From: Tricholoma matsutake
Taxonomy: Eukaryota > Basidiomycota > Agaricomycetes > Agaricales > Tricholomataceae
DNA length: 64,000 nucleotides
Direction of reading: 5' to 3'
Assembly (NCBI GenBank): GCA_026075535.2
Contig: AP026543.1
Location: 8,308,001-8,372,000, forward strand
The notes below the pieces were generated by a model. It was not told the DNA's origin. It ran no database searches and saw only the letters and a list, made by a program, of their open reading frames with translations. Shown in pieces: positions 3,318-36,770 of this stretch (position 1 is the stretch's first letter; each line of letters starts with the position of its first letter). The position numbers and the translations under genes were made by a program.

Positions 3318-3710
3318 GCGACCGGGGAGGCGCCTGAGCGCTTTCAGATCCGCTGTCGGTTACGCGTTGCAACGACTCCAGTCGACTACGCTTTCCTTTC
3401 CGAGCTGAGAGGCTCACGTCGGGGCGGCAGTTTCCCCTAAATCTTGCACGCATACCCGTAGGGATTCGGGGATCACAACATCGTCAAGCTCGGGTTGTCG
3501 GTACGCCACCACTGGCAAGTCCGTTTACTCGATAAAGGGGGCCCCCTTAGTAGTCGTCGCAGTTATCCAGGTGGTTGGTGCGAAGATTAGCAGGAGGAGG
3601 ACTTGGGCTGGGCGTAGTGTACTTCGTTTGTACGTCTCTGCCGCGGACTGCGATCGGGCGCCGCGTTATAAATTTTTGACCCAAAAAAAAAAAAAAAAAA
3701 AAAAAAAAAA
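3318..3710 (+). mobile_element. LINE 'L' 3'UTR fragment with poly(A)
   Basis: This stretch matches the last ~365 nt of the L 3'UTR found at ~29,170-29,533, followed by 28 A (3683-3710). It includes the terminal perfect stem CGCGG/CCGCG and TTATAAATTTTTGACCC before the tail. It contains no coding sequence. Confidence 0.8.
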
Positions 3711-4993
3711 CATGGCATCAGAGGTGGCTTTGATTTCCAGCCTCTCATCCCTAGATAGCGGCACTTCGTCCTCCACCAGCTCGGGGACGGGGGGCCAAGG
3801 CGGTAGTGGGGCAGGGGATGCCTCCGGATAAAGGAGCTCAGCGATGCCGAGCTCCTGTGAATACATATCCTCCTTAGGGAGGCTACAAGCCCAGCGCTTG
3901 TGTTCGACGTCGACACCAAGTGCCCATCGTACACGATCGATCGTTTTCCTTGAGGAGAGCCTAGGCCCTCCCTCGGCAAAAATGAGAGCCTCCTGCATGG
4001 CAAGAGAGTCGTCATCGTCATCATCGTTAGGGTCGGAGAGGTCTTCCCCGGCCCATAGATCTCTAGCTGCCTTGAGAGCAGCTGCTACCTCCGATTCATC
4101 TTGCACGAACTGGGTGTCGTAGTCTTGGACGCCATCATCAAAGATGTCGCCCATGATCAAAGCGGGGTCGCGTAGACCCCGATGTGGTGGTTGGCCTCTG
4201 GTTCGCTGTTTGGGCATTGAGAGTGTGTGTTAGTGCTAGTAGATGATGGTAAGAATCAAAATACGCAGTGTGGAATCAATAACGGCTGGTCCCTTATCTA
4301 CATTCCGGGTCCATCCGATACAGCCTCCGAACGCTCCGAGGGGGCGAGCAAGCCACACATCCTGCTGCCTAGTGGGAGAAGATTGAACCCGGGTCATACC
4401 ACCCTATAAGAGTGAGCACTGGAGGTAGAGGGATGGTGGTGAGAAGCGGCCACCAAGGTGTAGGCCTAGCCGCCAGGGGGCACCATTACCCGGCCCCTTT
4501 TAGCGATGGTATATTCCAACAGGTAGTCAGTGTAGCATGTCTCTAGTAGTAGAAACTCACAGAGCATGGACGCAGAAAGCCTCAAAGACGACCAGCAGTC
4601 CAGTAAGAACATCCTTCCCCCTAAGCCAGACCTCCCCCAGCTAAACGAGTGCTTCTACTTGGGCGAGCGTTGAAGCAGGCATCCCACACCCACTCTAAGC
4701 CCCCATAGGGACCCAGACTACTCTTTCATAGACATCACTCACCTAGCCAGGATCCTCGAAGCCAAGGGGAACAAGACAGATAGCAGTCACTGTTGGAAAC
4801 AATGACTGAGACATCCCTGGAGATCGGATGGACAGATCTCTTAGCAAATCAGGCCAGGCCTGGAGACGCCGAGAGCGTTCGTGATGGCGAAATCCGATCA
4901 AAAATCGGACCAAAATTGGAGTCTCGACGTTGCTACCAACATCGAGCAGGAGTGTTTACCACTGTTTATGGTGGTTGTAACAAGTCAAGGAGC
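3711..4993 (-). mobile_element. B retroposon, 3'-truncated, with N-terminal ORF part
   Basis: The minus-strand B ORF runs from ATG at 4217 down to ~3711. It is broken inside the segment EATSDAM, where the poly(A) of the plus-strand L tail begins. About 170 N-terminal residues remain and are closest to those of the copy at 19,251-21,518 (LWAGEDLSDPNDDDDD). The 5'UTR continues to the B 5' terminus at 4993. The C-terminal part, 3'UTR and tail are missing. Confidence 0.8.
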
Positions 4994-8605: not shown

Positions 8606-8867
8606 GTGGATAGTCAGTGTAACATGTCTCTAGTAGTAGAAACTCACAGAGCATGGAGGTTGGTGGCCCCCAGGACAACCAACAGTCCAGTAAGAATGTC
8701 CCTCGCCCCTAAGCCAGACCTCCCCCAGCTAAATGAGTGTTTCTACTTGGGTGAGCATTGAAGCAGGCATCCCACACCCACTCTAAGCCCCCATAGGGAC
8801 CCAGACTACTCTTTCATAGACACCACTCACCTAGCCAGGATCCTCAAAGCCAAGGGGAATGAGACAC

Positions 8868-11118
8868 GTTGCTCCTTGACTTGTTACAACCACCATAAAT
8901 AGTGGTAAACACTCCTGCTCGACGTTGGTAGCAATGTCGAGACTGCAATTTTCATCCGATTTTCGATCGGATTTCACCATCATGAACGCTCTCGGCGTCT
9001 CCAGGCGTGGCCTGATTTGCTAAGAGATCTGTCCATTCGATCCCCATGGATGCCCCAGTCACAGTTTTCAACACTGGCTGTTATCTGTCTCGTTCCCCTT
9101 GGCTTCGAGGATCCTGGCTAGGTGAGTGGTGTCTATGAAAGAGTAGTCTAGGTCCCTATGGGGGCTTAGAGTGGGCATGGGATGCCTGCTTCAATGCTTG
9201 CCCATGTCGACGCACTCGCTTAGTAAGGGGAGATCTGGCTTAGGGGAAAGGTCACTTCTACTGGATTGCTGGTCAGCCTGGGTGCCACCTCCTTGCTATG
9301 TGAGTCACTACTACTAGGGACAAGCTACACTGACTACCTGGTTGGAATACACCATCGTTAAAAGGGGCCAGGTGACAGTGCCCCCTGATGGCTAGGTCAA
9401 TGTTCTGGTGGCCGCATTTCACCACCAACTTCTCACCTCCAGTGCTCACTCCGTTGGGGTGGTATGACCCAGGTTCGATCTTCTCCCACTCGACAGCAGG
9501 ATGTGCGGCCTGCCTGTCCCCTCAGAGCGATTGGAGGCTATATCGGGTGGATCCGGAATTGAGATAAGGGACCGTCCATTAACGTTATCATGCTACATAT
9601 CTTGACTTCTACCGTCATCTACTTTTGCTAAATCATCCTCAATGCCCTCTGCAAACCATAGAGCACGAATTGGGCACCGGGTGGCACACAGCAACCCCCT
9701 CTTACACACCAATTTCGACGTCGCAGACTTTGACAACGACTATCTCCCAGAGTTTGGTCACATCTCTCTGGGTGGATGGGACTCTGATGTGGACAACCAG
9801 CTCCACAATCTATGGTCGGAGGATGACTCCTCTGACCTATCAGAAGTTGATGACTCTGCCAGCGGCGGAGACGTCGAATTTATCCCAGGTCTCACTGAGC
9901 TAGCCTCGCAGGAGACTATAAACTGCATCTTGTGGTCACAGCATGTGGCCAACAATACGAGTAATCTGGCTCTCGAGCTTGGGCTCGAGGCCAACAACAA
10001 TCGGGAGCTCAGCATCGCCGAGCTCCTTTATCCAGAGGGGCAGCAGGAGCAATCTGTGCCACCCCTCCCCACTTCACCGGGTTCATCTGCCATCCCAGAG
10101 TTGGTGGAGGATGAGCCTCTGTTGTCGAGAGATGAGAGGGTGGAATTAACAGCCGCTTCTCATGGCTTTCTACATCTACTGGAGGCAATGACAATTTTTG
10201 TCGGTACTGTCTGGGTGTCCGCCGTCCCTCTCACAGAGAGGAATATATGGCATCAGATGGCTTGGGAATTATTCACAACCACCTGGCGATTGTCCAAGCC
10301 AATGTTGGCAGAACTAGCAGCTGCTGGGTTGCCTCTTGATCTCACGTCACCGGCAGCCTTCAGGGCTTCCTATGCAGCTAGGCAGGCAGCTCAAGCAGAG
10401 CTCCAACATGGGGAACCTTCATCCCCATCACGACGCTGCCATCCTCGAGGTCCTCAAGCACAGCAGTGTCACTACTGAAAAGGGGGAACCACCCCTCCAC
10501 ATATATGCCCACCACAGGAGTGGTGGCCGTTATCAGGATAATGACGCTTAGCCATTACCCTACACCTTCTCCCTGCTGCAGGGGGGATGTTGTCATCAAG
10601 CACATGCACATTTTGGCACTTGCTTGAGGGGGGCCTTGGCCCCCTGCCTATGGTAGTTCCGGTGAGTAACCAGGTGAATAACCAGCTACCTCATTTTCAT
10701 CACTCGTGTGCAGGCACAGTGATGGTCCACCTCATTTGCCTGGGGTGGTCAACCCTTGTTGGCTGGGAACATGCGGACAGTTATTCCTCCCGCAAGGGGG
10801 GATTTACAGTGAATTAACACGGCTGCGCCTGATCTGACTTTGGTTGGATATATGGCTGGGGGACTGTTCCACACTAGCTGACGACCTAATGGCTAGCTTT
10901 GGGAGGGGGGGCTCCCCCTCCGGATTATTGCCTTTCCTGGCTGAGAGGCCAACGTCTGTGGCACTGCCCACCTAAAGTGGCTAAAACGGGGACCTGGGTG
11001 GGAGATGGGCAAGGGGAATGCATAGATAGAGTAGTACCCGAGTTTGTACCCCGCTCCATGGACTGCATTTGAGCCCCGCATTATAAATTTTTGACCCAAA
11101 AAAAAAAAGAAAAAAAAA
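8868..11118 (+). mobile_element. Full-length B retroposon, copy b, with 13 bp TSD
   Basis: This is the clearest complete element in the window. It has the 5' terminus GCTCCTTGAC at 8871 (after three extra bases), the 5'UTR to 9641, the ORF at 9642-10,478, the 3'UTR, the shared tail TTATAAATTTTTGACCC and poly(A) at 11,098-11,118. It is flanked by GGGGAATGAGACA (8854-8866) and GGGGAACGAGACA (11,119-11,131), a 13 bp TSD with one difference. Insertion follows CCAA in the target. These are hallmarks of target-primed reverse transcription of a full-length RNA. Confidence 0.92.
9642..10478 (+). CDS. B-element ORF protein, 278 aa (subfamily 3)
   Basis: This subfamily has a different N-terminus (MPSANHRARIGHRVAH, then FDVADFDNDYLPEFGHISL), but keeps the acidic block (LWSEDDSSDLSE), LASQETIN, ELSIAELLYPEG, a proline-rich segment, ELVEDE, SRDERVEL, HLLEAMTIFVGTVWVSAVPLTERN, WHQMAWELFTTTWRLS, LDLTSPAAFRASYAARQAAQAEL and the basic tail. 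The frame is intact. Conservation of the C-terminal ~170 residues with the MPKRRTR subfamily, while the N-terminus diverges, is what selection on the C-terminal core would produce. Function unknown; no known catalytic motif is seen. Confidence 0.7.
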   Translation: MPSANHRARIGHRVAHSNPLLHTNFDVADFDNDYLPEFGHISLGGWDSDVDNQLHNLWSEDDSSDLSEVDDSASGGDVEFIPGLTELASQETINCILWSQHVANNTSNLALELGLEANNNRELSIAELLYPEGQQEQSVPPLPTSPGSSAIPELVEDEPLLSRDERVELTAASHGFLHLLEAMTIFVGTVWVSAVPLTERNIWHQMAWELFTTTWRLSKPMLAELAAAGLPLDLTSPAAFRASYAARQAAQAELQHGEPSSPSRRCHPRGPQAQQCHY

Positions 11119-11347
11119 GGGGAACGAGACAGATAGCAGTCACTGTTGGAAACAATGACCAAGACATCCCCAGGGATAGGATGGACGGATCTCTTAGCAA
11201 ATCAGGCCAGGCCTGGAGATGCCAAGAGCATTCATGATGGCGAAATTCAATCAAAAATTGGACGTAAATTGAAGTGTCGACGTTGTGAGCAACGTTGAGC
11301 AGAGGTGTTTACCACTGTTTATGGTGGTTGTAACAAGTCAAGGAGCG

Positions 11348-13290: not shown

Positions 13291-14126
13291 CGCTCCTTGA
13301 CTTGTTACAACCACTATAAACAGTGGTAAACACCTCTGCTCAACGTTGCCAGCGACATCGACACTTCAATTTACGTCCGATTTTCGATCGGATTTCACCA
13401 TCACGAACGCTCTCGGCGTCTCCAGGCCTGCCCTGATTTGCTAAGAGATCCGTCCATCCGATCCCCGGGGATGCCCCGGTCATTGTTTTTGACAATGGCT
13501 GCTATTCATCTCGTTCCCCTGTGCTTCGAGGATCCTGGCTAGGTGAGTGGTGTCTATGAAAGAGTAGTCTAGGTCCCTATGGGGGCTTAGAGTGGGTGTG
13601 GGATGCCTGCTTCAACGCTCGCCCAAGTCGACGCACTTGTTTAGTTGGGGGAGGTCTGGCTCAGGGGGAGGGACATTGTTACTGGACTGCTGGTCGTCTC
13701 TGGGGCTTCCAACCTCCATGCTATGTGAGTCACTACTACTAGGGACAAGCTACACTGACTACCTGTTGGAATACACCGTTGCTAAAAGGGGCCGGGTGAC
13801 GGTGCCCCCTGATAGCTAGGTCGATGCTCTGGTGGCCGCATTTCACCACCGACTCCTCACCTCCGGTGCTCACTCCTCTGGGGTGTTATGACCCGGGTTC
13901 AATCTTCTCCCACCAGGCAACAGGATGCGCGGCCTGTTTGCCCCCTCGGAGCGTTTGGAGGCTATATCGGGTGGACCTGGAACTGAGATAAGGGGCCATC
14001 TGTTATCGACCTTACGCTACGTACTTTGACTGTTATCGTCATTTACCTGTGCTAACTCACTCTCAATGCCCAAACAGCTGAACAGAGACCAAACCACATG
14101 CTGGGGCCTTCACGACCCCACCTTGA

Positions 14127-16384
14127 TTTTTTTTTTTTTTTTTTTTTTGGGTCAACAATTTATAACGCGGGGCTCGATCGCAGTCCGCGGAGCAGGATAC
14201 AAACTTGGGTACTACTGTAACTACGCTTCCCCTCGCCCACATCCTACCCAGGTCCTCGTTTTAGCCACTTTAGGCGGGCAGTGCCACAGACGTTGGCCTC
14301 TCAGCCAGGAAAGGCAATAATCTGGAGGGGGGCCCCCCCTCCCGAAGCTAGCCATTAACTCGTCCACCAGTGCAGAACGGTCCCCCAGCCACATATCCAA
14401 CCGAGGTCAGATCAGGCGCGGCCGTGTTAATTCACTGTAAATCCCCCCTTGCGGGAGGAATAACCGTCTGCATACTCCTGGCCAGCGAGGATTGACCACC
14501 CCAGACGAATGAGGTGGACCATCACTGCGCTCCCGCACGAGTGACAGAGATGTGGTAGCTGGTTGTTCACCTGGTTATTCACCGGAACTACCGTGGATAG
14601 GGGGCCAAGGCCCCCTTCGAGTAGATGCCGTCGAGGGCATACGCTCGGTAACAACGTCCCCCCCGTAGCGGGGAGAAGGTAGAGGGGAGCGACACACTGC
14701 CACTATCCCGATATCGGCCACCAACTAATTGGTGGGAGTAGATGTGGGGGGGTGACACCCCCCTTTCAGTAGCGGCGCTGCTGTGCTCGAGGACCTCGAG
14801 GATGGCGGCGTCGTGATGAGGACGAGGGTTCCCCATGATGGAGCTCTGCATGAGCTGCCTGCCTAGCCGCGTAGGAAGCCCTGAAGGCTGCCGGTGACGT
14901 GAGGTCGAGAGGCAATCCGGCAGCTGCTAGTTCTGCCGACATTGGCTCGGACAATCGCCAGGTGGTCGTGAATAACTCCCAGGCCATCTGATGCCATGCG
15001 TTCCTCTCAATGAGCGGAACGGCGGATACTCGGACGGTACCGACGAAAATCGTCATAGCCTCCAGTAAATGTAGAAAGCCATGAGAGGTGGACGTTATGT
15101 CCACCCTCTCATCTCTCGACAACGGAGGCTCATCCTCCACCAACTCTGGGATGGCGGATGAACCCGGTGATGTGGGGAGGGGCGGTGCAGATTGCTCCTG
15201 CTGCCCCTCTGGATAGAGGAGCTCGGCGATGCCGAGCTCTTGATTGTTGTTGGCCTCGAGCCCAAGCTCGAGAGCCAGATCATGCACCTCGTCGGCTATC
15301 ACTTGTGATGCCAAGAAGCGGTTTATCGTCTCCTGCGAGGCTAGCTCGGTGAGACCTGGAATGAATTTGACGTCTCTGCCTGTGGCAGAGCCGTCATCGT
15401 CGTCTGGCAGGTCGGAGGAGTCATCCTCCGCCCAGAGATTGTGGAACTGGTTAGCCACATCAGAGTCCCATCCGCTCAGGGAGACGTGTCCGAACTCTGG
15501 GAGGTAGTTGTCGTCGAAGTCGGCGAAGTCGGCGTTTGTGTATAGGAGGGGGTCGCCATGAGCCGCCTGGTGTCGAGTTCGCGCTCTACGGTTTGTAGAG
15601 GGCATTCAGGATGATTTAGCACAAGTAGATGACAGTAGAAGTCAAGATACGTAGCGTGTTAACGATAACAGACGGTCCCTTATCTCAATTCCGGGTCCAC
15701 CCGACACAGCCTCCAGACGCTCCGAGGGGGCAGACAGGCCGCAAATCCTGCTGCAGATTGGGAGGGGCGATTGAACCTGGTTCCGAACACCTCGAGGGTG
15801 TGAGTGCCGGAGGTAAAGAGTCGGTGGTAAGTAGCGGCCACCAGAGCGTTGACCTAGCCACCAGGGGGCACCATCGCCCGGCCCCTTTTAATGATGGTGT
15901 ATTCCAATGGGTAGTCAGTGTAGCAGGTCTCTATAGGTAGAAACTCACGCAGCATGGAGGTAGGAAGCCTCCCAGACGACCCACAATCCAGTGAATATGT
16001 CCCTTCCCCTGAACCAGACCTCCCCCAGCTAAACGAATGCAACGACTTGGGCGAGCGTTGAAGTAGGCATCCCACACCCACTCTAAGCCCCCATAGGGGC
16101 CCAGACTACTCTTTCATTGCCAACACTCACCTAACCAGGATCCTCGAAGCCCAGGAGAGCGAGACGAATAGCAGACACTGTCAAAAACAGTGACCGGGGC
16201 ATCCACAGAGATCGGATGGACGGATCTCTTAGCAAATCAGGGCAGGCCTGGAGTCGCCGAGAGCGTTCGTGATGGCGAAATCCGATCGAAAATCGGACCA
16301 AAATTGAGGTGTCGACGTCGCGTGCAACGTTGAGCAGAGGTGTTTACCACTATTTATGGTGGTTGTAACAAGTCAAGGAGCGAT
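14127..16384 (-). mobile_element. Full-length B retroposon, copy c, with 13 bp TSD
   Basis: A complete minus-strand element: poly(T) 14,127-14,148, 3'UTR, ORF 15,605-14,766, 5'UTR to ~16,381. The host B ORF sequence GACCCCACCTTGA is present at both 14,114-14,126 and 16,385-16,397. In element orientation, poly(A) joins the target after TAA. It belongs to the same subfamily as copy b. Confidence 0.92.
14766..15605 (-). CDS. B-element ORF protein, 279 aa (subfamily 3)
   Basis: An intact frame with ATG at 15,605. It begins MPSTNRRARTRHQAAH and follows copy b closely: LPEFGHVSLSGWDSDV, LWAEDDSSDLPDDDD, LASQETIN, LGIAELLYPEG, ELVEDEPPLSRDERVD, WHQMAWELFTTTWRLSE, LDLTSPAAFRASYAARQAAHAEL and a basic Arg-rich end. 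Two intact, non-identical copies of one subfamily with mostly conservative changes suggest selection on the protein or recent activity. Function unknown. Confidence 0.7.
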   Translation of the reverse strand: MPSTNRRARTRHQAAHGDPLLYTNADFADFDDNYLPEFGHVSLSGWDSDVANQFHNLWAEDDSSDLPDDDDGSATGRDVKFIPGLTELASQETINRFLASQVIADEVHDLALELGLEANNNQELGIAELLYPEGQQEQSAPPLPTSPGSSAIPELVEDEPPLSRDERVDITSTSHGFLHLLEAMTIFVGTVRVSAVPLIERNAWHQMAWELFTTTWRLSEPMSAELAAAGLPLDLTSPAAFRASYAARQAAHAELHHGEPSSSSRRRHPRGPRAQQRRY

Positions 16385-17403
16385 GACCCCACCTTGATTA
16401 CGGGTGACATCGTTGGTGATGATGCCCAAGACTATGACACCCAGTTCTCACAGAACGAACTGGAGGTAGCAGCTGCCCTAGGCAGTTTGAGATCTGTGGG
16501 CCGGGGAGGACCTCCCCAACCCTGACGACTATGTGGACTCTCTTGCTAGGCAGGAGGCCCTCGCTTACACTGCACGCTGCGTATTTCGATCACTTGCATC
16601 ATATACCAGTACTAACTTGCTCCTGATGCCCAAGCGGACAACCAGAGACGATCGTTCCAATGATCCTACGCCTCCGGCAGCTGTTCCAGCTTCCTGTGTG
16701 GCGATGCCAACAGCTCTAGCAGAGCTCCAATCTGGGGAACCCTCGTTCCCAGTACAGTGCCGTCATCATCACAGATGGCTGTGCTGCTACTTGTGTGGGG
16801 CATCCTGCTCCACACCCATCACCGCCAGTCCACTGGCTGCTGTCGGGTTGGTGACAAATGTCGCTACCCTTTACGTTCTCCCCGCTGCGGGGGGGAAATT
16901 GCTACCGAGTGCATGTGCTGGCAGTGCATTTGCTCGAGGGGGGCTTTGGCCCCCTGCTTATGGCGGTTCCAGTGAATAACCAGGTGAACAACCAGCTGCC
17001 ACATTACTGTTACTCGTGCATGACACGGTGATGGTCCACCTCGTTCATCCGGGGTGGTCAATCCTTGTTGGCTGGGAGTATGCCGACGGTTATTCCTCCC
17101 GCAAGGGGGGATTTATGGTGAATTGACACTGCTGTGCCTGATCTGACTTTGGTTGGATATGTGGCTGGGGGACCGCTTCGCACCAGCTGACGATCTAATG
17201 GCTAGCTTCGGGAGGGGGTCTCCCCCTCCAGATTATTGCCTTTCCTGGCTGAGAGGCCAACGTCTGTGGCACTGCCTGCCTAAAGTGGCTAAAACGAGGA
17301 CCTGGGTAGGATATGGGTGAGGGGAAGCGTAGTTATAGTAGTACCCAAGTTTGTATCCTGCTCCGCGGACTGCGATCGAGCCCCACGTTATAAATTGTTG
17401 ACC

Positions 17404-17446
<43 letters not shown>

Positions 17447-18010: not shown

Positions 18011-19138
18011 TCCCTGGCTAGCTGGGGACGTGGAGAGAATTGTAACATTCGGGCATGTCCCCTCGAAGTTTGAGTGGAACGTACACAAGATGGCTCACGA
18101 TGTAGCTACATCTACCAAGATCTCCGTGGGCAGACACCTGCGGACGTCTTTAGACTACTTTAAAAACCAGGCCAAAAAGGCCGTTTGTAAGGATTGGCAC
18201 ACCTGGTTCTCAGATCCGGCGTACCATGGACGGCATTTCTACCGACTCAAAGGTGTTGGTGGAAAACCAGTATTACCCTCGACTCACAAAGGTGGGCCTT
18301 GGCTGAAAGTAATGGGAAACAACACCACATTGACTTCCTGTTCAACTCATATGATCACTGGCCATGCTCCTATAGGGGAGTATCGTCACCGTCTCTCCCT
18401 CGATGGGGAATACCAATGCTGGTGTCTTGGTCCTGAGATACAAACTCAAGACCATCTGCTACGCATCTGCCCGAAGGTGAATCACAAAGAAACTCGTGCA
18501 AGCCCAGACTCCATTGAAGGCTTCCATGAATTTATGGACAACGACCTGGCTCTCGGGTCGTTCAACTCACTTGCATGGGATCCAGGATAGGCTGTGCGTG
18601 CAGGGTGTATGACCCTCATCTGGTTCTGGCTAGTGTTATCGGTATGTCGGGGTGGCCATAGGGCACCAGACGAGTCTGTTAACCCTCATAAAGGGGGCCC
18701 ACCCGTGTTCAGGAGCGACTGTCAGGGAGGGGGGACACGAAACTAGGTACTGGTTCGGGGAGGTGCCTGAGCGCTTTCAGATCCACTGTCAGTTGTGCGT
18801 TACGGCTTCGATGCTGACTACGCTTTCCTTTCCGAGCTGAGAGGCTCACATCGGGGCAGCAATATCCCCTAAATCTTGCACTCATACCCGTAGGGATTCG
18901 GGGAACATGACATCATCAAGTCCGGGTTGTCGGTACGCCACCACTGGCAAGTCCGTTTACTCGATAAAGGGGGCCCCCTTAGTGGTCATCGCAGCTATCC
19001 AGGTGGTTGGTGCGAAGTTCAGCAGGAGGAGGACTTGGGCTGGGCATAGTGTACTCTGCTTGTATGTCTCTACTGCGGACTGCGTTCAGGCATCGCGTTA
19101 TAAATTTTTGACCCAAAAAAAAAAAAAAAAAAAAAAAA
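18011..19138 (+). mobile_element. LINE 'L' copy, 5'-truncated, with ~10 bp TSD
   Basis: An open frame to 18,590 reads the end of RNase H (FGHVPSKFEWNVHKMAHDVATSTKI) and the C-terminal Cys/His motif (CWCLGPEIQTQDHLLRICP), ending AWDPG. A ~525 nt 3'UTR and 24 A (19,115-19,138) follow. The target sequence CTCAGGGATG is present just left of the insertion (17,998-18,007) and again at 19,139-19,148. Insertion follows CCAA. This shows that L itself uses the same kind of integration as B. Confidence 0.85.
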
Positions 19139-19250: not shown

Positions 19251-21518
19251 TTTTTTTTTTTTTTTTTTTTTTTTTTTGGGTCAACAATTTATAACGCGGG
19301 GCTCAATCGCAGTCCGCGGGTCAAGATACAAACAAGGTACTACTAAGACTACGCATTCCCTATGTCCGCATCCCACACCAGGTCCCTTGCAGAAGCCACG
19401 TTATGGCGGGCATACCAGCGTTGTCCTCTCAGACAGGAAAGGCAATAATCTCTAGGGGACGGGCCCCCCCCACAAAGGCTAGCTGTTAGTTCGCCGTCTG
19501 GTGCTATCTCAGTCCCCCCGGCCACATATCCGACCGAAGTCAGATCAGGCGCAAGCAGTGTCAATTCACCGTAAGTCCTCCCTTGCGGGAAGAGTAACCA
19601 TCTTTCACCAGACAACGAGGATTGACCACCCCAGGTGAGTGAGGTGGACCATCACTGTGTCCATGCACAAGTGACAGTGACGAGGCAGCTGGTTATTCAC
19701 CGGAACTGCCGTAGCTGGTTATTCACCGGAGCTACTGTAGGTAGGGGGTCGAGGCCCCCCCCACGAGCAAATGCTACACTGAGCATGCACTCGGTGACAT
19801 CATCCCCCCCGCAGTGGGGGGAAGGTAAAGGGTGGCGACATATTGTCACCATCCCGACAACAGCCCTGGTGGGCGGTGAAGAGAAGGGGGGGTCCCCTTC
19901 TTCAAGCTCGGCGTGGTCATTGGCGGGGGCCATGAGGACGTCGACGCCGTTCCGGGGACAAGGGTTCCTCGGTTGGAGGCTCTGCCGCTGGTGGAGCAGA
20001 CTGAGCCGCCTGCATCGCCGCATAGGAAGCCTGGAAGGCTGCCGGAGACATAAGGTCGAGGGGAGCTGATGCCGCGCGAAGCGACTCCATCATGCTCCCT
20101 GAAAATCACCAGGTGGTGGTGAAGAGCTCCCACGCCATCTGACGCCAAGAGTTCCTGTCGTTGAGAGGAACTGCGGACACTCGGACGGTACCTACAAAAG
20201 AGGTCATCATGTCCAGTAGATGTAGCATGGCATCAGAGGTGGCTTCGATTTCCAACCTCTGATCCCTAGATAACGGCACTTTGTCCTCCACCAGCTCGGG
20301 GATGGGGGGCCAAGGCGGTAGCGGGGCAGGGGATGCCTCCGGATAAAGGAGCTCAGCGATGCCAAGCTCCTGTGAGTATATATCCTCCTTTGGGAGGCTA
20401 CGAGCCCAGCGCTTGTGTTCGACGTCGACACCAAGTGCCCATCGTACACGATTGATCGTTTTCCTCGAGGAGAGCCTAGGCCCCCCCTCGGCAAAAAGGA
20501 GAGCCTCTTGCATAGCAAGAGAGTCATTGTCGTCATCATCGTTAGGGTCGGAGAGGTCTTCCCCAGCCCATAGATCTCTAGCTGCCCTGAAAGCAGCTGC
20601 TACCTCCGATTTGTCTTGCACGAACCGGGTGTCGTAGTCTTGGACGCCATCATCAAAGATGTCGCCCGTGATCAAAATGGGGTCGCGTAGACCCCGATGT
20701 GGTGGTTGTTGGCCTCTGGTTCGCCGTTTGGGCATTGAGAGTATGTGTGTTAGTGCTAGTAGATGATGGTAAGAATCAAAATACGCAGCGTGGAATCGAT
20801 AACAGCTGGTCCCTTATCTACATTCCGGGTCCACCCGATCCAGCCTCCGAACGCTCTGAGGGGGCGAGCAAGCCGCACATCCTGCTGCCTAGTGGGAGAA
20901 TATTGAACCCGGGTCATAACACCCTAGAAGAGTGAGCACCGGAGGTAGAGAGTTGGCGGAGAGTGGCGGCCACCAGGGCATCGACCTAGCCGCCAGGGGG
21001 CACCATCGCCTGGCCCCTTTTAACGATGGTGTATTCCAATGGGTAGTCAGTGTAGCATGTCTCTAGTAATAGAAACTCACAGAGCATGGAGGCTGGAAGC
21101 CTCCCAGACAACCAGCAATCCAGTGATAACGTCCCTTCTCCCTAAGCCAGACCTCCCCCAACTAAACGAGTGTGTCGACTTGGGCAAGCGTTGAAGCAGG
21201 CATCCCACACCCACTCTAAGCCCCCAGAGGGACCCAGACTACTCTTTCATAAACAACACTCACCTAGTCAGGATCCTCGAAGCCCAGGAGAACGAGACAG
21301 ATAGCAGCCATTGTCAAAAACAATGACTGGGGCATCCCCGGGGATTGGATGGACGGATCTCTTAGCAAATCAGGGCAAGCCTGGAGACGCTGAGAGCGTT
21401 CATGATGGTGAAATCCGATCGAAAATCAGACAAGAATTGAAGTGTCGACGTCGCATGCAATGTTGAGCAGAGGTGTTTACCACTATTTATGGTGGTTGTA
21501 ACAAGTCAAGGAGCGTTG
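19251..21518 (-). mobile_element. Full-length B retroposon, copy d, with 12 bp TSD
   Basis: Poly(T) 19,251-19,277, subfamily-2 3'UTR, ORF from ATG at 20,735, and 5'UTR to 21,515. The host sequence GCGAGTCCATTG is duplicated at 19,239-19,250 and 21,519-21,530. The 3'UTR is diverged from the other full copies yet keeps the terminal shared tail and the GC-rich hairpins. Confidence 0.92.
19880..20735 (-). pseudogene. B-element ORF with premature TGA (copy d)
   Basis: The frame from 20,735 is intact to 20,106 (209 codons) and reads the standard B architecture (LITGDIFDDGVQDYDT, LWAGEDLSDPNDDD, ELGIAELLYPE, ELVEDKVPLSRDQR, WRQMAWELFTTTW). It meets a TGA exactly where the other copies have an Arg codon in TTTWRLSE. 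In-frame coding continues beyond (LDLMSPAAFQASYAAMQAAQSA, then an Arg/Pro-rich end to ~19,880). A CGA-to-TGA transition explains the stop. Confidence 0.8.
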
Positions 21519-21632: not shown

Positions 21633-23858
21633 TTTTTTTTTTTTTTTTGGATCAGAATTTATAACGCGGGGCTCGAGCGCAGTCCGCGGAGCAAGGTACA
21701 AACTCGGGTACTACTTTATCTACGCGTTCCCCTCGCCCATCCCCCACTCAGGTCCCCGTTTTAGCCACCTTTAGGCGGGCAGTTCCACAGACGTTGGCCT
21801 CTCAGCCAGGAAAGGCAATAATCTGGAGGGGGCGCCCCCCCCTCCCGAAGTTAGCCATTAGATCGCCCCCTGGAGCAAACGGTCCCCCAGCCACATGTCT
21901 GACCGAGGCCAGACCAGGCGCAGCAGTGTTAATTCACCGTAAATCCCCCCTTGCAGGAGGAATAACCGTCTGCGTTTTTCCAGCCAACGAGGATTGACCA
22001 CCCCAGACAAATGAGGTGGACCATCACCGTGTTGTGCACGAGTGACAGTAACAAGGCGGGTGGTTGTTCACCTGGTTATTCACCGTGACCGCCGTAAGTA
22101 GGGGGCCGAGACCCCCCTCGAGCAAATGCACCTAAGTGCACGCACTCGATGACATCGTCCCCCCCGCAGTGGGGGGAAGGTATAGGGAAGCGACACCGTG
22201 TCACCCTCCCGATAGTGGCCACCAGTTACTTGGTGGCCGTGAATGTAGAGGGGGATAGCCCCCTGTACTAGTTGCGGCGCTGCTGTCCACGAGGACCTCG
22301 AGGACGACGGCGCCGTGCTGGGGACGAGGGTTCCCCAGATTGAAGCTCTGATTGAGCAGTGTGCACCGCCGCGTAGGAAGCCCGGAAGGCTGCTGGAGAC
22401 GTGAGGTCGAGAGGTGTCGGAACGGCTGCTAGTTCCGCCGACATCGTCTCAGACAGTCGCCAGGTGGTCGTGAATAACTCCCAGGCCATTTGGCGCCATG
22501 TGTTCCTCTCTGCAGGGGGAACGGCGGATGTACGGACGGTACCAATGAACATGGTCATCGCGTCAAGTTGGTGTAACATGGCATGAGAGGTGGCTTCGAT
22601 TTCCAACCTGTCATTCACAGATAGCGGCACTTCGTCCTCCACCAACTCAGGGATGGGGGGCAAAGGCGGTAATGGGGCAGGGGATGCCTCCGGATAGAAG
22701 AGCTCGGCCATGCCGAGCTCCTGTGAATACATGTCCTCGCGTTCGAGACTGCGAGTCCACCGTTTATGTGCGACATGGACGTCCTGCGCCCACAGCACAC
22801 GGTCTATCGTTTGCCTCGAGGCCAGCTTGGGGCTGCTCTCGGCGTAATTGAGGGCCTCTTGCATAGCAAGAGAGTCCTCGTCATCCTCAGGGTCGGAGAG
22901 GTCTTCTCCAGCCCATAGATCTCTAACTGCCCGTAGGGCAGTAGCTACATCCGGATCGTCTTGATCGTACCGGGTGTCGTAGTCTTGGACGTCATCATCA
23001 AAGATGTCGCCCGTGATCAGAACGGGGTCGCGTAGACCCCGATGTGGTGGTTGGACTCTGGTTCGCCGTTTGGGCATTGAGAGAGAGTGTGTGTTAGTGC
23101 TAGTAGATGATGGTAAGAATCAAAATATGCAGCGTGGAATCGATAACGGCTGGTCCCTTATCTACATTCTGGGTCCACCCGATCCAGCCTCCTAACGCTC
23201 CGAGGGGGCGAGCAAGCTGCACATCCTGCTGCCTAGTGGGAGAGTATTGAACCCGGGTCATGACACCCTAGACGAGTGAGCACCGGAGGTAGAGAGTGGG
23301 TGGAGAGTGGCGGCCACCAAGGTAACGACCTAGCCGCCAGGGGGCACCATCGCCCGGCCCCTTTTAACGATGGTGTATTCCAACGGGTAGTCAGTGTAGC
23401 ATGTCTCTAGTAATAGAAACTCACAGAGCATGGAGGCTAGAAGCCTCCCAGACCACCAGCAATCCAGTGATAACGTCCCTTCTCCCTAAGCCAGACCTCC
23501 CCCAACTAAACGAGTGTGTCGACTTGGGCGAGCGTTGAAGCAGGCATCCCACACCCACTCTAAGCCCCCAGAGGGACCCAGACTACTCTTTCATAAACAA
23601 CACTCACCTAGTCAGGATCCTCGAAGCCCAGGAGAACGAGACAGATAGCGGCCATTGTCAGAAACAATGACCGGGGCATCCACGGAGATCGGATGGACGG
23701 ATCTCTTAGCAAATCAGGGCACGCCTGGAGACGCCGAGAGCGTTCGTGATGGTGAAATCCGATCGAAAATCGGACGGAAATTGAAGTGTCGACGTCGCTT
23801 GCAACGTTGAGCAGAGGTGTTTACCACTGTTTATGGTGGTAGTAACAAGTCAAGGAGC
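21633..23858 (-). mobile_element. Full-length B retroposon, copy e
   Basis: Poly(T) 21,633-21,648, 3'UTR, ORF 23,077-22,268, 5'UTR to the B terminus at ~23,857. It is nearly identical to copy a at 1084-3317 along the entire length, with scattered single-base changes. No TSD is visible because the right flank is another B tail rather than the continuation of the left flank. Confidence 0.88.
22268..23077 (-). CDS. B-element ORF protein, 269 aa
   Basis: An intact frame from ATG at 23,077. It differs from the ORF at 1726-2535 by only a few residues (for example Thr for Ala in the ERN(A/T)WRQ segment and Arg for Cys in the basic tail). Architecture: acidic N-terminal block, ELGMAELFYPE, Pro-rich, ELVEDEVPLS, probably helical core, LDLTSPAAFRASYAA, basic tail. 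Function unknown. Confidence 0.7.
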   Translation of the reverse strand: MPKRRTRVQPPHRGLRDPVLITGDIFDDDVQDYDTRYDQDDPDVATALRAVRDLWAGEDLSDPEDDEDSLAMQEALNYAESSPKLASRQTIDRVLWAQDVHVAHKRWTRSLEREDMYSQELGMAELFYPEASPAPLPPLPPIPELVEDEVPLSVNDRLEIEATSHAMLHQLDAMTMFIGTVRTSAVPPAERNTWRQMAWELFTTTWRLSETMSAELAAVPTPLDLTSPAAFRASYAAVHTAQSELQSGEPSSPARRRRPRGPRGQQRRN

Positions 23859-24373
23859 GATGTTGTTGGCATCTACTCGAAGGGGGCCTTGGCCCCCTAT
23901 CCACGGTAGTTCCGGTGAATAACCAGGTGAACAACCAGCTACCACATCTCTGTCACTCGTGTGGGAGCGCGGTGATGGTCCACCTCATTCATCTGGGGTG
24001 GTCAATCCTCACTGGCCGGGAACATGCAGACGGTTATTCCTCCCGCAAGGGGGGGGGATTTACAGTGAATTAACACAGCCGTGCCTGATCTGACTTCGGT
24101 TGGATATGTGGCTGGGGCCCGTTCTGCACTGGCGGACGAGTTAATGGCTAGCTTCGGGAGGGGGGGCTCCCCCTCCAGATTATTGCCTTTCCTGGCTGAG
24201 AGGCCAACGTCTGTGGCACTGCCCGCCTAAAGTGGCTAAAATGAGGACCTGGGTAGGATATGGGTGAGGGGAAGCGTAGTTACAGTAGTACCCAAGTTTG
24301 TATCCTGCTCCGTGGACTGCGATCGAGCCCTGTGTTATAAATTGTTGACCCAAAAAAAAAAAAAAAAAAAAAA
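23859..24373 (+). mobile_element. B retroposon 3' tail, 5'-truncated
   Basis: Plus-strand B 3'UTR beginning near the GGGGGCC..GGCCCCC hairpin and ending in TTGTTGACCC and 22 A (24,352-24,373). Confidence 0.75.
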
Positions 24374-25107
24374 CTCGAGACCATATATTACGCATCTGCC
24401 ATGCAGTAGATCGCAAAGAGACTCCTGCTAGCCCAGACTCCGTCGAAGGCTTCCACAAATTTATGGACAATAATCCTGCTCTAGGATCGTTCACCCTGCT
24501 TGCATGGGATCCAGGATAGGTTGTGCGCGCAGGGCATATGACCCTCGTCTGGTTCTGGCTAGTGTTATTGGTATGTCGGGGTGGCTGTAGAGCACCAGAT
24601 GAGTCCATTAACCCTCATAAAGGGGGCCCACCCATGTTCAGAAGCGACTGTCAGGGAGGGGGGACATAACACCAGGCACTGGTTTGGGGAGGCGCCTGAG
24701 CGCTTTCAGATCAATTTAGGTGCCCGTCCAAAGTGTGATATCACACTTTGGCAGCACCTAAATGTCGGTCATGTGTTATGACTTTGTCGACTACACTTTC
24801 CTTTCTGAGCTGAGAGGCTCACGTCAGGGCGGCAGTCTCCCCTAAATCTTGCACTCATACCCGTAGGGATTCGGGGAACATGACATCGTCGAGCCCGGGT
24901 TGTCGGTATGCCACCACTGGCAAGTCCGTTTACTTGATAAAGGGGGCCCCCTTAGTGGTCATTGCAGCTATCCAGGTGGTTGGTGTGAAGATCAGCAGGA
25001 GGAGGACTTGGGCTGGGCATAGTGTACTCTGTTTGTATGTCTCTACCGCAGACTGCATTCAGGCATCGCGTTATAAATTTTTGACCCAAAAAAAAAAAAA
25101 AAAAAAA
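24374..25107 (+). mobile_element. LINE 'L' 3' end with poly(A), carrying a palindrome insertion
   Basis: The last ~45 codons of L ORF2, with damage, and the L 3'UTR to poly(A) at 25,088-25,107. A ~50 bp foldback sequence replaces the usual bases at 24,714-24,763 and is not seen in the other L 3'UTR copies. Confidence 0.8.
24714..24763. repeat. 50 bp foldback palindrome in an L 3'UTR
   Basis: The outer arms ATTTAGGTGC (24,714-24,723) and GCACCTAAAT (24,754-24,763) pair perfectly. The inner arms CCAAAGTGTGAT (24,728-24,739) and ATCACACTTTGG (24,740-24,751) also pair perfectly with no loop. Only a 4 nt and a 2 nt bulge separate the two stems. Other L copies lack it (compare 3345-3390, 18,778-18,830 and 29,200-29,240), so it is an insertion of unknown type. 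Confidence 0.9.
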
Positions 25108-28100
25108 GAGCCTCCTTGGAGACTGATAAGACACGCCCCATCTGCCCACAACAGGGAAGGGGAGGAAGTTATCGGTGCACCGATGAGCCCCAACTGGGGT
25201 ACCTTGGTATGACCATCAGGGGTTGACACCCCTCCACGCGTGGCTGTCTACTTTGCAAACAGCATTGCTAATCTCAGACTGGGTCTCCGCCGAGATCTGA
25301 TCGACGATCATGACATTCTTCTATTCTCCCTCAGAATAGGGGAAGATGTCATGTTACTCGCTAACGTCTATTCAGACAGCCAATACTTGGCCATCACACT
25401 TCTTTATGAAAGTGTCATGATGATCCCATGCTTGCACTTTATGTGTGGTGACTTCAACATGAGACACGCCTCCTGGGATCCCCAAGGGCCTGAACACTCT
25501 ATCCACACTGACCACTTGGTGGAAACAGCAACGGCTCTAGGCCTAACAAGGGCAGCCATCACACTCTTGTATGAAAGTGTCATGACGATCCCACGACTAC
25601 ACTTCATGTGTGGCAATTTCAACATGAGACATGCCTCCTAGGACCCCCAGGGGCCTGAACACTCCATTCATGCCAACCACTTAGTAGAAACAGCAATGGC
25701 ACTAGGCCTAACAAGGGCTCTCCCCACTGTGGAGGGACCAACCCATTTTCCCCCACAACAGGGCTTTCACCCCACGGTGATCGACCTAATGTTTATACCC
25801 ATGGATCTAAGATTTGTGTTGTACTGCGATATTGTCCCAGAAGTCAGGGGTATGTCTGACCACGCTCCCCTGACACTGACACTACCTGGTCTGGGATCTC
25901 TGGTCCCGGTCACCAAGTGGGCAATCAAAAAAGGATCCGAGGAGGAAGCATCATATCTTGATGCTGTCTCCTCCGCTTTAAATCCATGGCTTCAGTGGCA
26001 TGGAAATACTTTGGCAGAGATCGATGACATTGTTTCGGTGATATCAACGATTTTAAACAAGGCATGGGATAACCATGCCAAGGAATCTCACCTAGGCAAG
26101 TCATCCAAAGGATGGTGGACAGACAAATGCAAAGGTGCACTTGACGCTTACAGAGCCACTCGAGATGAGGAGGACTGGAAGCATTACCGCAAAGTCATCC
26201 AACATGCGAAATGCGACTTCTTCAATGACTGCATCCAAGAAGTGGCCACTATGAACAGATGACCCTGGGACCTTGTGTCCTGGACCTATCAAAGAAACCT
26301 GCCATCGTACGAGGCAATCTCCTATCGGGGAAAGCCTTGCAACGATCTTGATTCCCTGTGGGCTGCCCTTGATGGCTCATATAATGCTGCTTCAGACCGA
26401 GTTGTAGATCTGAGCATCCTAAACAATCTGGATCTGGTGCCTGAAAGGGCCTGGATCCTGTTCTCCATTATGGAAATGAAAGAAGTGCTCAGTGCGTGTT
26501 CTTCCCATTCCGCTCCAGGTCCCGATCATGTTACATGGTCACACCTAAAACACTGGTGTAGCAACCCTGAGGTAGCAGGTCTCATCACCCGCATAGCCGA
26601 GGCTTGCATCACCGTTGGCCACTGGCCAGCACACTTCAAGGAATCCCTGTCGGTTATTATCCCAAAACCAGGGAAACCTAATTACTCTATGCCAAAGTCA
26701 TTCAGGCCTATTGTGCTATTGAACACTCTGGGCAAATTAGTCGAGAAGATGCTGTCTAGGTGGCTTCAGTTCGATGGAGTGGCCCATGAAGCCTTCAAGC
26801 AAAACCAGTTCGGAGGAGTTGCCCAGTGTTCCATGGAGGATGCAGGAATCTACCTTACCCACCTAGTCAGAGCAGGATGGGCCCAAGGTCTCAAAACGAG
26901 CGTTGTTGCATTCGACATCACCCAATTTTTCCCCTCCTTGAACCACCAGGTTCTGCTGGAGATCATCTCTCGGTTGGGATTCCCTGCGCAAGTAGTGAAT
27001 TTCTTCTGTTCCTACCTTGTCAGTCGGAAGACGACCTATAAGTGGAATACCTTCTCATCTGGCTCCTTTGCAGCAGATGTGGGGGTGGGACAAGGGTCTG
27101 CCTTGTCCCCTGTCCTATCGGCGTTATACCTAACGCCCATTATGAAGCTCTTCAGAAGAAGCAACATCGGCAGAGATGCCGATCTCATGTCTTATGTGGA
27201 TGATGGCACTCTCATCACCTGCTCTGCACAGCTGGAGAATAATCTCCCCCTTCTCAAAGAAGCGTATGGCTGGATCTTCCAGGCATTCACCTCCCTCAGA
27301 CTTGTCCTGGAACATGACAAATCGGAGATATTCCACTTTTCTAGGTCGAGGAGCTTCACCCCTCTACCAATAGATTTAGGGTTTGCCCCGTACACTGGCA
27401 ACTCACCTCTCAAACCCAAGACTACCTGGAGGTACCTTGGGTTCTTCTTTGATCACAAGCTCTCCTTCAAGGAACACACGCGATTTTACTCCACCAAAGC
27501 CCTCACAATGGCGAGGGCAATGGGAATGCTCGGCAATTCTGTCAGAGGGCTAACCCCCATGTAGAAACGCCTCCTGTACCACTCATGCATCGTACCCATT
27601 ATGACGTATGGACTGAGACTCTGGCATTTCAGGGGCGCACATGTCAAAGGTGTCATCAAAACGCTGGCCCAGGTGCAGTCCATCACTGCATGCTGGATCC
27701 TCGGTGACTTCCGTACCACCCCTATCGGTGGACTGGAAAGTATTGCAGGACTGTTGCCCATGCAACTGTTACTGTGTAGATTAGTCGACAGAGGGGTATT
27801 TAGAACCCCCCTGCTGGCCCCATCTCACCCCCTGAGAGCAATCTTGGGAGCGAAACACGTTGGCATGACTCACCCTCATGACTTAGGTCTCTGGGGAGGG
27901 GACGTGCTCAACACACTCACACTACAGGGCCCGTCTGTCGCTTCTGCAACAGCACTGGCCCTTGTACCGGATGATGAATTCGACCCCTTTGGGGAAGAAA
28001 ACATGCCTGGAAACAGAGTTAAGGACTTGTTCCCCACTCACTTTTCCTCTCATCGCCTTGCCTCCAAGGAGGACGAGGCGAGGAAATCTTACAGGAGTGA

Positions 28101-29539
28101 CCTTGACAAAGCCTGGGCTTCTGCCCAGGTGGAGGAAGACACTCTCATCGTTGCAGTGGACGCGTCAGTGCCCACCGATGCTAAATTCCAAGCTGTCGCT
28201 TGCGCACTCGTCTTCGGACAAGGTGAGCAAGTCAATCGCATTGTCTCAGCTTCTGGGAGGGGAACCCCCCCAGAAGTCAAACTATTCGCCCTCCAGCTGG
28301 GCATCTCAGCTGCTTGCAGCAGGGGCTGCAGAAAGCTGGTGATCTTCTCGGATTCTACAGTGGGCATCGAGTCCCTTGTGGATCCAACACCACATTCTGG
28401 GCAAATATTTGCCCTGGACGCTTGTCGCTCACTTCATCCCTGGCTAGCTGGAGACAAAGAGAGAAACGTTACATTCTGGCATGTCCCCTCGAAATTCGAG
28501 TGGAACATACACAAGTTGGCTCACGATGTCGCTACATCTACCAAGATCTCCATGGGCAGACACCCTTGGATGTCTCTAGACTACCTTAAAAACCAGGTCA
28601 AAACAGCGGTTTGTAAGGATTGGCACACATGGTTCGCTGAACCGTCATATCGTGGATGGCATTTCCTCCAACTCAAAGGAGTCAGAGGAAAACCAGTACT
28701 ACCCTCAACCCACAAGGGTGGTTGAAAGTCATGGGGAACAGTACTACTGACACTTCCCGTGCAACTCGTATGATCACTGGCCATGCTCCCATAGGGGAGT
28801 ATTGTCATCGTTTCTCTCTCGAAGGGGAATACCAATGTTGGTGTCTCGGTCCTGAGATTCAAACTCGGGATCACATTCTGTGCATCTGCCCAGCAGCAGA
28901 TCACAAAGAAACTCGTGCAAGCCCAGACTCTGTCGAAGGCTTCCATGAATTCTTGGACAATAACCCTGCAATAGGGTCGTTCACCCCATTAGCATGGGAT
29001 CCAGGATAGGTTGTGCACGCAGGGGGTATGACCCTCATCTGGTTCTGGCTAGTGTGATCAGTATGTTGGGGTGGCTGTAGGGCACCAGACGAGTCCATTA
29101 ACCCTCACAAAGGGGGCCCACCCGTGTTCAGGAGCGACTGTCAGGGAGGGGGGACACAAACCCAGGTACTGGTTTGGGGAGGCACCTGAGCACTTTCAGA
29201 TCTACTGTCGGTTGCATGTTATGATGACTCAGTCGACTATGCCTTCCTTTCCAAGCTGAGAGGCTCACGTTGGGGTGGCAGTCTCCCCTAAATCTTGCAT
29301 ACATACTGATGGAGTTGTGGGGAACACAACATTGTCAGGTCCGGGTTGTCAGTATGCCACCACTGGCAAGTCCATTTACTCAATAAAGGGGGCCCCCTTA
29401 GTGGTCATTGCAGCTATCCAGGTGGTTGGTGCAAAGATTAGCAGGAGGAGGACTTGGGCTAGGTGTAGTGTACTTCATTTGTATGTCTCTGCTGCGGACT
29501 GCGATTGGGTGCCGCGTTATAAATGTTTGACCCAAAAAA
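25108..29539 (+). pseudogene. LINE 'L', longest single copy: APE-RT-RNase H, 5'-truncated
   Basis: This is the best view of L ORF2. It starts inside the endonuclease (WRLIRHAPSAHNREGEE), then has HFMCGDFNMRHASWDP, the DLMF / SDHAPLTL endonuclease end, and the RT (26,275-27,564: APGPDHVTWSHLK, FRPIVLLNTLGKLVEKML, QFGGV, FDITQFFPSLNHQ, GVGQGSALSPVLSAL, SYVDDG). RNase H follows (27,601-28,725: VAVDAS, ELFALQLG-like, IFSDS, KLAHDVA) and then CWCLGPEIQTRDHILCICP and AWDPG (ends 29,009). The 3'UTR runs to 29,533 with six A. Stops at ~26,260 (TGA), 27,562 (TAG) and one in the duplicated APE unit, plus a small deletion near 28,722, inactivate it. APE+RT+RNase H places it near Tad1-like or I-like fungal LINE clades; the exact clade is undecided. 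Confidence 0.9.
25391..25720 (+). repeat. 165 bp in-frame tandem duplication in the APE domain
   Basis: 25,391-25,555 is followed immediately by a diverged copy at 25,556-25,720. Each encodes 55 residues running from AITLLYESVM through HFMCG(D/N)FNMRHAS to TALGLTRA or its equivalent. The first unit has the catalytic GDFN; the second has GNFN and a TAG in place of Trp. Confidence 0.9.
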
Positions 29540-33020: not shown

Positions 33021-33026
33021 TAAGTC

Positions 33027-36643: not shown

Positions 36644-36770
36644 CAAGATTTCAAGTTGGAAAGCAGTCAGAACAGGAAAATGAAGTGTAGAATGAAGGCA
36701 TAATTGTAGTTATAACAGCTATTTACACATTGCCAGGGATGCAAAATTATTGGCGCCCTCTGTTGGGAGC

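What the first reader, a model, noticed from the sequence alone, without database searches (positions are those of the whole stretch)
8868..11118. B: a protein-coding but RT-less retroposon family
At least five full-length copies (1084-3317, 8868-11,118, 14,127-16,384, 19,251-21,518, 21,633-23,858) share the layout 5'UTR, one ~270-280 codon ORF, 3'UTR, poly(A), with no RT or endonuclease. Most non-autonomous LINE partners (SINEs) lack ORFs. Here three subfamilies with very different N-termini keep the same C-terminal core (ELVEDE, WRQMAWELFTTTWRLSE, LDLTSPAAFRASYAA), suggesting the protein matters to spread. I recognise no family for it. It may be an undescribed retroposon class, or an ORF1-like protein of a split two-component system.
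Basis: partly seen in the sequence, partly recalled or inferred. Interest (0 to 1): 0.9.

Follow-up and report, generated by a model that had tools for sequence, protein, structure and literature searches.

The report
Protein-coding LINE parasite in mushroom centromeres
In the matsutake mushroom, a 2.2-kb mobile element whose two ends resemble those of a complete LINE in the same genome, but which lacks that LINE's copying enzymes, encodes one selectively maintained protein of unknown fold; the copies found lie almost only in the presumed centromeres.

Summary
The five full-length copies are real. The genome fits matsutake (Tricholoma matsutake): 161,040,721 bases, 13 contigs; window chr6:8,308,001-8,372,000. 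Each copy has a ~775-nt 5'UTR, one ORF (269-280 codons where intact), a ~600-nt 3'UTR, poly(A), and no RT.
I read B as a non-autonomous retroposon mobilised in trans by a LINE intact elsewhere in this genome (6.4 kb; 636-aa ORF1, 1289-aa EN-RT ORF2). Both termini resemble: a 16-nt head (11-15 of 16 identical) and the last 38-69 nt before poly(A) (79-84%). Target duplications of both are preceded by A (B 40/41, LINE 7/7).
B's protein is not detectably related to the LINE's ORF1 and has no significant Pfam, PDB or fold match. It is under purifying selection between subfamilies (dN/dS 0.23-0.39; out of frame 1.0-1.5). Subfamily I is a mosaic of I2-like and II-like halves.
417 of 418 scored B hits lie in 14 intervals set by the LINE hits, apparently the published GC-rich, LINE-rich putative centromeres.
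B is not wholly new: a near-identical ORF is in databases as 'CzcA-like protein' (Q9C4A5), and B may be marY2N (2001; sequence unavailable here). New, as far as I found, are the LINE pairing and the selected orphan protein.

The parts
8868..11118 (+). B element, subfamily IIa, full length
   Evidence: locus L001
8872..8887 (+). 16-nt 5' head CTCCTTGACTTGTTAC, resembling the LINE head (11-15 of 16 identical in ten LINEs)
8868..9641 (+). 5'UTR, about 770 nt
9642..10478 (+). B ORF, 278 aa, stop-free; orphan protein
10479..11097 (+). 3'UTR; its last 38 nt match the LINE 3' end at 82% (57-69 nt at 79-84% in the other four window copies)
11098..11118 (+). poly(A), one G inside
8854..8866 (.). 5' copy of target-site duplication ggggaaYgagaca (other copy 11119-11131)
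   Evidence: read by eye; one mismatch, not counted among the 41
14127..16384 (-). B element, subfamily IIb, full length; ORF 14766-15605, 279 aa, 99% identical to Q9C4A5 'CzcA-like protein'; target duplication GACCCCACCTTGAT read by eye
19251..21518 (-). B element, subfamily I2, full length; ORF broken by TGA after codon 209
21633..23858 (-). B element, subfamily Ia, full length; ORF 22268-23077, 269 aa
1084..3317 (-). B element, subfamily Ia, full length, 99% identical to the 21633 copy; ORF 1726-2535
13291..17427 (+). older, degenerate B element (5' and 3' parts), split by insertion of the 14127-16384 copy
3709..4993 (-). B subfamily I2, 5' part only
30767..32605 (-). B, subfamily I type, internal deletion of about 380 nt in the 5'UTR
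33026..34781 (+). two B 5' parts in a row (positions 1-887 and 3-884), each cut early in the ORF
34781..36646 (+). longer degenerate B copy (positions 1-1016 and 1458-2233) with poly(A)
24371..29539 (+). LINE pieces (EN/RT/RNase-H-like ORF2 and 3' end with poly(A)), the presumed helper family
18011..19137 (+). LINE 3' part with poly(A); its 3'UTR used for tail comparison
53854..55184 (-). LINE 5' part (ORF1 C-terminal half and start of ORF2)
42975..46328 (+). LINE 3' half, interrupted at 43646-44133

Best explanation
B is a non-autonomous, protein-coding non-LTR retroposon that uses the enzymes of a LINE family intact in the same genome. B RNA is made from an internal promoter in its 5'UTR (inferred). 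The LINE's endonuclease-RT recognises the shared 3' tail and poly(A), nicks a target next to an A, and copies B by target-primed reverse transcription, leaving 11-15-bp duplications (products shown; the step itself inferred from similar ends and site signature). B encodes a ~30-kDa acidic protein with a mostly helical core (low-confidence model) and an arginine-rich tail. It is kept by selection in the amplifying lineages, most simply because it acts in cis on its own RNA, for example in RNP formation, nuclear entry or chromatin access (selection shown, role inferred). The copies of both elements found here lie almost only in the putative centromeres; in this window many are nested in one another.
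For: No RT in B: 58 of 70 loci have both ends within 2158-2477 nt. Intact helper: L061 has ORF1 636 aa and ORF2 1289 aa with EN, RT and a sub-threshold RNase-H-like match; 36 of 98 listed LINE hits show a 1289-aa frame, two of them with a TGA. Similar 3' tail with poly(A) left out: 38-69 nt at 79-84%, E 1e-4 to 3e-11, five window B copies against L061; median identity 0.79 over the last 40 columns for 74 distinct B and 22 distinct LINE tails. Similar 5' head at the junction: 11-15 of 16 in ten of ten LINEs. TSDs: 41 of 58 B (4 of 3306 mismatched pairs), 7 of 10 LINE; A at -1 in 40/41 and 7/7. Purifying selection: dN/dS 0.27-0.38 in nine of ten subfamily pairs on near-fixed codons, 0.23-0.39 as pairwise medians over all ten; in four pairs 0.23-0.36 in frame, 1.00-1.52 out of frame; third-position excess without CpG sites in 17 of 18 comparisons. 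Co-location: 417 of 418 B hits inside intervals set by the LINE.
Against: No transcript, protein or mobilisation assay. The shared ends are short: the 84-88% included poly(A), and without it identity is 79-84% over 38-69 nt; the head is 16 nt and as low as 11 of 16. Upstream of the last ~95 nt only one ~50-nt block resembles, at the edge of the shuffled range (scores 41, 37, 41; maxima of 200 shuffles 42, 36, 38). Beyond the A, no extended target motif links the two elements (p = 0.08). No compensatory changes support a tail hairpin. dN/dS used stop-free ORFs found mostly by protein similarity, which favours low values; the frame control and near-fixed-difference count reduce but do not remove this. 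Ia-Ib near-fixed differences are too few to exclude 1 (0.41, 0.15-1.04). Other RT families could also serve B. The clustering rests on best-scoring copies and lacks a Ty3 control.
Confidence: 0.7

Rival explanations
1. B is the remnant of a second, autonomous LINE whose ORF1 is the B protein; its RT-bearing form is lost or was not among the scored hits (as HeT-A may derive from TAHRE).
For: dN/dS well below 1 would fit inheritance from an ORF1; terminal sequences like a LINE's fit internal deletion.
Against: No RT between B's ORF and its poly(A) in 58 two-ended loci of 70; no detectable similarity to the helper's ORF1 (hhalign probability 0.2%); no RT domain is listed on any of the 11 B homologues found among 5.8 billion proteins, although the length filter of that search would miss a much longer fusion.
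Confidence: 0.14
2. The ORF is a passenger: a captured host or orphan reading frame that plays no part in spread; the apparent constraint comes from sampling intact copies or from RNA-level constraint.
For: The set was picked mostly by protein similarity; no homologue or fold explains a function; the UTRs are mostly more conserved than the N-half between subfamilies I or I2 and II.
Against: Out-of-frame dN/dS is 1.0-1.5, so the constraint follows the reading frame; it holds for near-fixed differences and mostly without CpG sites. Of the 40 best hits to the 5'UTR alone, at least 22 have a stop-free ORF (matched by eye; 6 have stops, 12 unknown); youth alone could explain this last point.
Confidence: 0.11
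3. The copies spread mainly as DNA (segmental duplication or conversion inside centromeres), not by retroposition.
For: One nested pair of B elements recurs on chr4 and in the window at 93% identity, so duplication of segments also happens; 17 of 58 two-ended B and 3 of 10 LINE copies lack a duplication under the criterion used.
Against: 41 of 58 two-ended B copies have duplications of 11-15 bp and poly(A).
Confidence: 0.04

Closest known systems
HAL1 (half-L1) and L1, mammals (PMC5753468, passages)
   Same: Non-autonomous LINE-linked element that encodes one protein and no RT
   Different: HAL1 encodes the partner's own ORF1p; B's protein shows no relation to its LINE's ORF1
HeT-A with TART/TAHRE, Drosophila telomeres (PMC5537684, passages)
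   Same: Non-LTR element in a specialised chromosome region, its protein reported under negative selection, RT from an uncertain outside source
   Different: HeT-A forms head-to-tail telomeric arrays, thought to need no DNA nicking; B nests in putative centromeres with target duplications; the seven B proteins examined have 0-3 Cys, so no zinc knuckles
NARTc/L1Tc, RIME/ingi and TSIDER1, trypanosomes (PMC3820030, abstract and passages)
   Same: Non-autonomous elements that share a 5' signature with a LINE and depend on its machinery; poly(A)
   Different: Those are short and non-coding; B is 2.2 kb and coding, and its shared head is only 16 nt
marY2N, T. matsutake (AB047280; Murata 2001, not held; described in PMC10627285, passages)
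   Same: LINE-like, mRNA-like with poly(A), concentrated near chromosome centres or ends in T. bakamatsutake; may be B itself
   Different: Sequence not available here, so identity could not be tested; the paper seen calls it a LINE
Grem-LINE1, Mucoromycota (PMC7763443, passages)
   Same: LINE around fungal centromeres
   Different: No protein-coding non-autonomous partner is mentioned in the passages seen

Membership tests
Non-autonomous partner of a LINE | No RT or endonuclease of its own | tested here: met
   58 of 70 loci two-ended at 2158-2477 nt with the single ORF; no RT domain in the ORF
Non-autonomous partner of a LINE | 3' end shared with an autonomous LINE of the same genome | tested here: met
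   38-69 nt before poly(A) at 79-84% in five window copies against L061; 74 B and 22 LINE tails, median 0.79 over 40 columns
Non-autonomous partner of a LINE | Target-primed insertion with same duplication size and site signature as the helper | tested here: met
   B 11-15 bp, A at -1 in 40/41; LINE 10-15 bp, A at -1 in 7/7; no longer motif
Non-autonomous partner of a LINE | Mobilised in trans by that LINE | not testable with these tools
   needs an assay
SINE | Short, non-coding, Pol III head from tRNA, 5S or 7SL RNA | tested here: not met
   2.2 kb and coding; no Rfam family at gathering score in the window, only three matches below gathering score in one B copy
HAL1-type (ORF1-only LINE derivative) | Encodes the partner LINE's ORF1 protein | tested here: not met
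   hhalign against LINE ORF1: probability 0.2%, E 0.39; shallow profile, one ORF1 sequence
HeT-A-type telomeric element | Gag with zinc knuckles (recalled) in telomeric head-to-tail arrays | tested here: not met
   0-3 Cys in the seven proteins examined; TSDs; clusters mostly internal, the chr12 cluster reaches the chromosome end
Autonomous LINE | Encodes RT | tested here: not met
marY2N | Sequence identity to AB047280 | not testable with these tools
   2001 paper not held and no tool gives the record; mRNA-like with poly(A) fits the description

The most novel reading that the evidence does not exclude
A two-element centromere system: the LINE supplies endonuclease and RT, and B supplies an acidic, arginine-tailed protein that brings B RNA, and perhaps the LINE's, to centromeric chromatin, as HeT-A Gag does for Drosophila telomeric elements. 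B would then be a co-operating or targeting partner, not a mere parasite.
Probability: 0.12. Interest if true: 0.85.

Novelty: new variant of a known kind. Interest (0 to 1): 0.55.

Why it matters
Elements that borrow a LINE's machinery in trans should gain nothing from coding, unless the protein helps its own RNA. An RT-less element whose protein, not related to its helper's ORF1, is kept by selection suggests that a LINE parasite can have its own cis-acting accessory protein. Because helper and presumed parasite have similar ends and live together in putative centromeres, the pair offers a concrete handle on how a LINE chooses its RNA and how mushroom centromeres are built. It also suggests that the database name 'CzcA-like protein' for this ORF is misleading.

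Tried and rejected
AlphaFold2 on the whole protein gave pLDDT 35.5 and was not used. On the C-terminal core it gave pLDDT 61, four helices; Foldseek found nothing with E <= 0.001 among 87 weak PDB matches. Pfam gave only chance-level matches (E 0.13-0.47) and PDB sequences none. A consensus tail hairpin had only one-sided, CpG-type changes and was dropped. A longer target motif shared by B and LINE was not found. A ribozyme or tRNA-like head: none convincing. My first figures for the shared ends (84-88% over up to 87 nt, ~21 nt head) were too favourable; on checking, the 3' figure had included poly(A). A Ty3 control for the centromere clustering could not be run; I rely instead on the published statement that LTR elements are depleted in these regions (PMC10211490).

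Full report
WHERE. The window is chr6:8,308,001-8,372,000 of a 161,040,721-base, 13-contig genome. That paper reports one GC-rich (~55%), LINE-rich, LTR-poor region per chromosome, two on chromosome 1, proposed as centromeres.

OBSERVATION. The five B copies are as described. Four of five ORFs are stop-free; the 19251 copy has a TGA. B covers 52% and the LINE 33% of the first 46.4 kb.

GENOME-WIDE. Protein searches scored 139 hits with the IIa query, 143 with I and 136 with I2, out of 1728, 2203 and 1805 first-look candidates. These are lower bounds, and a copy may be in more than one list. Of 70 B loci fetched (L001-L060, L082-L091), both ends were found in 58, length 2158-2477, median 2237; in 12 they were not, for reasons not examined. 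No RT fits between ORF and poly(A) in those 58.

HELPER LINE. Locus L061 (chr4) carries a complete LINE of about 6.4 kb: ORF1 636 aa with three CCHC-like motifs and ORF2 1289 aa with Exo_endo_phos, RVT_1 and a sub-threshold RVT_3 match. ORF1's stop is followed at once by ORF2's ATG. Of 98 listed hits to its RT part, 36 show a 1289-aa frame, two of them with a TGA. RT relatives: 278 proteins at E <= 0.001, 120 listed; the named ones are mostly Agaricales, with Hericium and Trametes; many are unnamed.

SHARED ENDS. With poly(A) removed, the last 38-69 nt of the five window B copies match L061's 3' end at 79-84% (E 1e-4 to 3e-11). The 84-88% over 56-87 nt had included poly(A). Over 74 distinct B and 22 distinct LINE tails, poly(A) excluded, the median identity is 0.79 for the last 40 columns, 0.72 for 60 and 0.69 for 78. 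Further upstream only one block of about 50 nt resembles, at the edge of the shuffled range. At the 5' end 60 of 62 B heads read CTCCTTGACTTGTTAC; ten LINE heads match it in 11-15 of 16 positions. A short variable string, often CATCG or ATCG, precedes the head in both families. A duplication of 10 nt or more was found in 41 of 58 two-ended B copies, 11-15 nt long, against 4 of 3306 mismatched pairs. Seven of 10 LINE copies have one of 10-15 nt. The base before it is A in 40/41 and 7/7; the base after is non-A by the way poly(A) was trimmed. No longer motif was found: LINE sites scored with the B matrix against random A-preceded sites gave p = 0.08, B sites left out one at a time p = 0.015.

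IS THE PROTEIN SELECTED? I compared 64 stop-free ORFs: Ia 23, Ib 7, I2 7, IIa 14, IIb 13. Four came from the window, the rest from loci found by protein similarity; loci whose longest matching ORF was under 255 aa were left out. On columns where each group is at least 80% one codon, dN/dS is 0.27-0.38 for all codons in nine group pairs, upper bootstrap limits 0.39-0.61; the tenth, Ia-Ib, has too few changes (0.41, 0.15-1.04). Median pairwise values are 0.23-0.39 over all ten pairs. The same code in shifted frames gives 1.00-1.52 for four pairs, 0.23-0.36 in frame. Third positions stay the most divergent after CpG sites are masked in 17 of 18 comparisons; the exception is the Ia-Ib core, with few changes. 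As a check not based on the ORF, I matched by eye the 40 best full-length hits to the 5'UTR to the ORF lists: 22 have a stop-free ORF, 6 have stops, 12 are in neither list. Youth alone could explain that; the between-subfamily constraint is the stronger evidence.

MOSAICS. In 150-column windows, using one window copy each, I and I2 are 93-98% identical over the 5'UTR, 74-95% in the N-half, but 67-70% in the core; I and IIb are 49-67% in the N-half, 79-81% in the core and 92% at the 3' end. So I combines an I2-like 5' half with a II-like 3' half. Database protein P0003 is a II/I chimera by eye. Between I or I2 and II the ORF N-half is more divergent than the UTRs, so UTRs have been exchanged or are constrained.

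PROTEIN. In seven examined: about 30.5 kDa, pI 4.6-4.9, C-terminus basic (net +1 to +6 over the last 30 residues), 0-3 Cys. Pfam matches at chance level only and no PDB sequence match, no detectable relation to LINE ORF1, no confident model, no significant fold match. All homologues with a named source are from T. matsutake; P0004 and P0131 have none (9 hits; 11, where only the 7997 candidates sharing most words were scored). P0006 is Q9C4A5 'CzcA-like protein', 99% identical to the 14766-15605 ORF.

CENTROMERES. The 98 LINE hits fall into 14 groups, one per chromosome and two on chromosome 1. With 300-kb margins these intervals cover 7.9% of the genome and hold 139/139 IIa-query, 143/143 I-query and 135/136 I2-query B hits; the odd one is chr6:6.835 Mb (places typed). 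The LINE hits lie inside by definition. Hits are the best-scoring copies only. No CENP-A data exist here; 'centromere' is the published inference, and I take these intervals to be the published GC-rich regions from their number and layout, as the paper's coordinates were not seen. A Ty3 control could not be run.

KNOWN OR NEW. PMC10627285 (passages) describes marY2N (AB047280) as a LINE that resembles an mRNA with poly(A), rich near the centre or end of chromosomes in T. bakamatsutake. That fits B at least as well as the LINE, but the 2001 paper is not held and the record could not be read here. The listings of my searches showed no paper describing an RT-less coding partner of this LINE; they cover only open PMC papers.

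MECHANISM. Shown: similar ends, target duplications, shared A signature, selected ORF, co-location. Inferred: internal promoter, use of the LINE's enzymes, cis action of the protein. Not known: what the protein binds.

Noticed in passing
L061 reverse complement 1-2507 and window 14765-17267: The same nested pair of B elements (one inserted in another, opposite strand) occurs on chr4 and chr6 at 93% identity, which points to exchange or duplication of segments between centromeric clusters.
   Followed up: partly
window 6612-7573 and 30767-32605: Two internally deleted B copies (about 310 joined to 1577, and 185 joined to 565).
   Followed up: no
window 46.7-53.8 kb: Ty3/gypsy-type element (gag-, RT- and integrase-like frames by eye) with similar flanking repeats, just outside the dense LINE/B block.
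   Followed up: no
window 43646-44133: A 488-bp insert with inverted ends (AGGGCAAGGCAGGGGT... / ...ACCCCTGCCTTGCCTT) rich in ACCCTT-like repeats splits the LINE; MITE-like by eye.
   Followed up: no
chr1, about 7.2-7.5 Mb and 16.0-16.9 Mb: Chromosome 1 has two LINE/B clusters, agreeing with the published idea of a fused, dicentric chromosome.
   Followed up: partly
chr12, 9.28-9.91 Mb of 9.913 Mb: The B hits reach the chromosome end, so this centromere would be terminal.
   Followed up: no
5' junctions of B and LINE loci: Short variable strings mostly ending in CG (CATCG, CGACG, CAACG, ATCG, ACG) lie between target duplication and element head in both families; heterogeneous transcript start or added bases.
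   Followed up: partly
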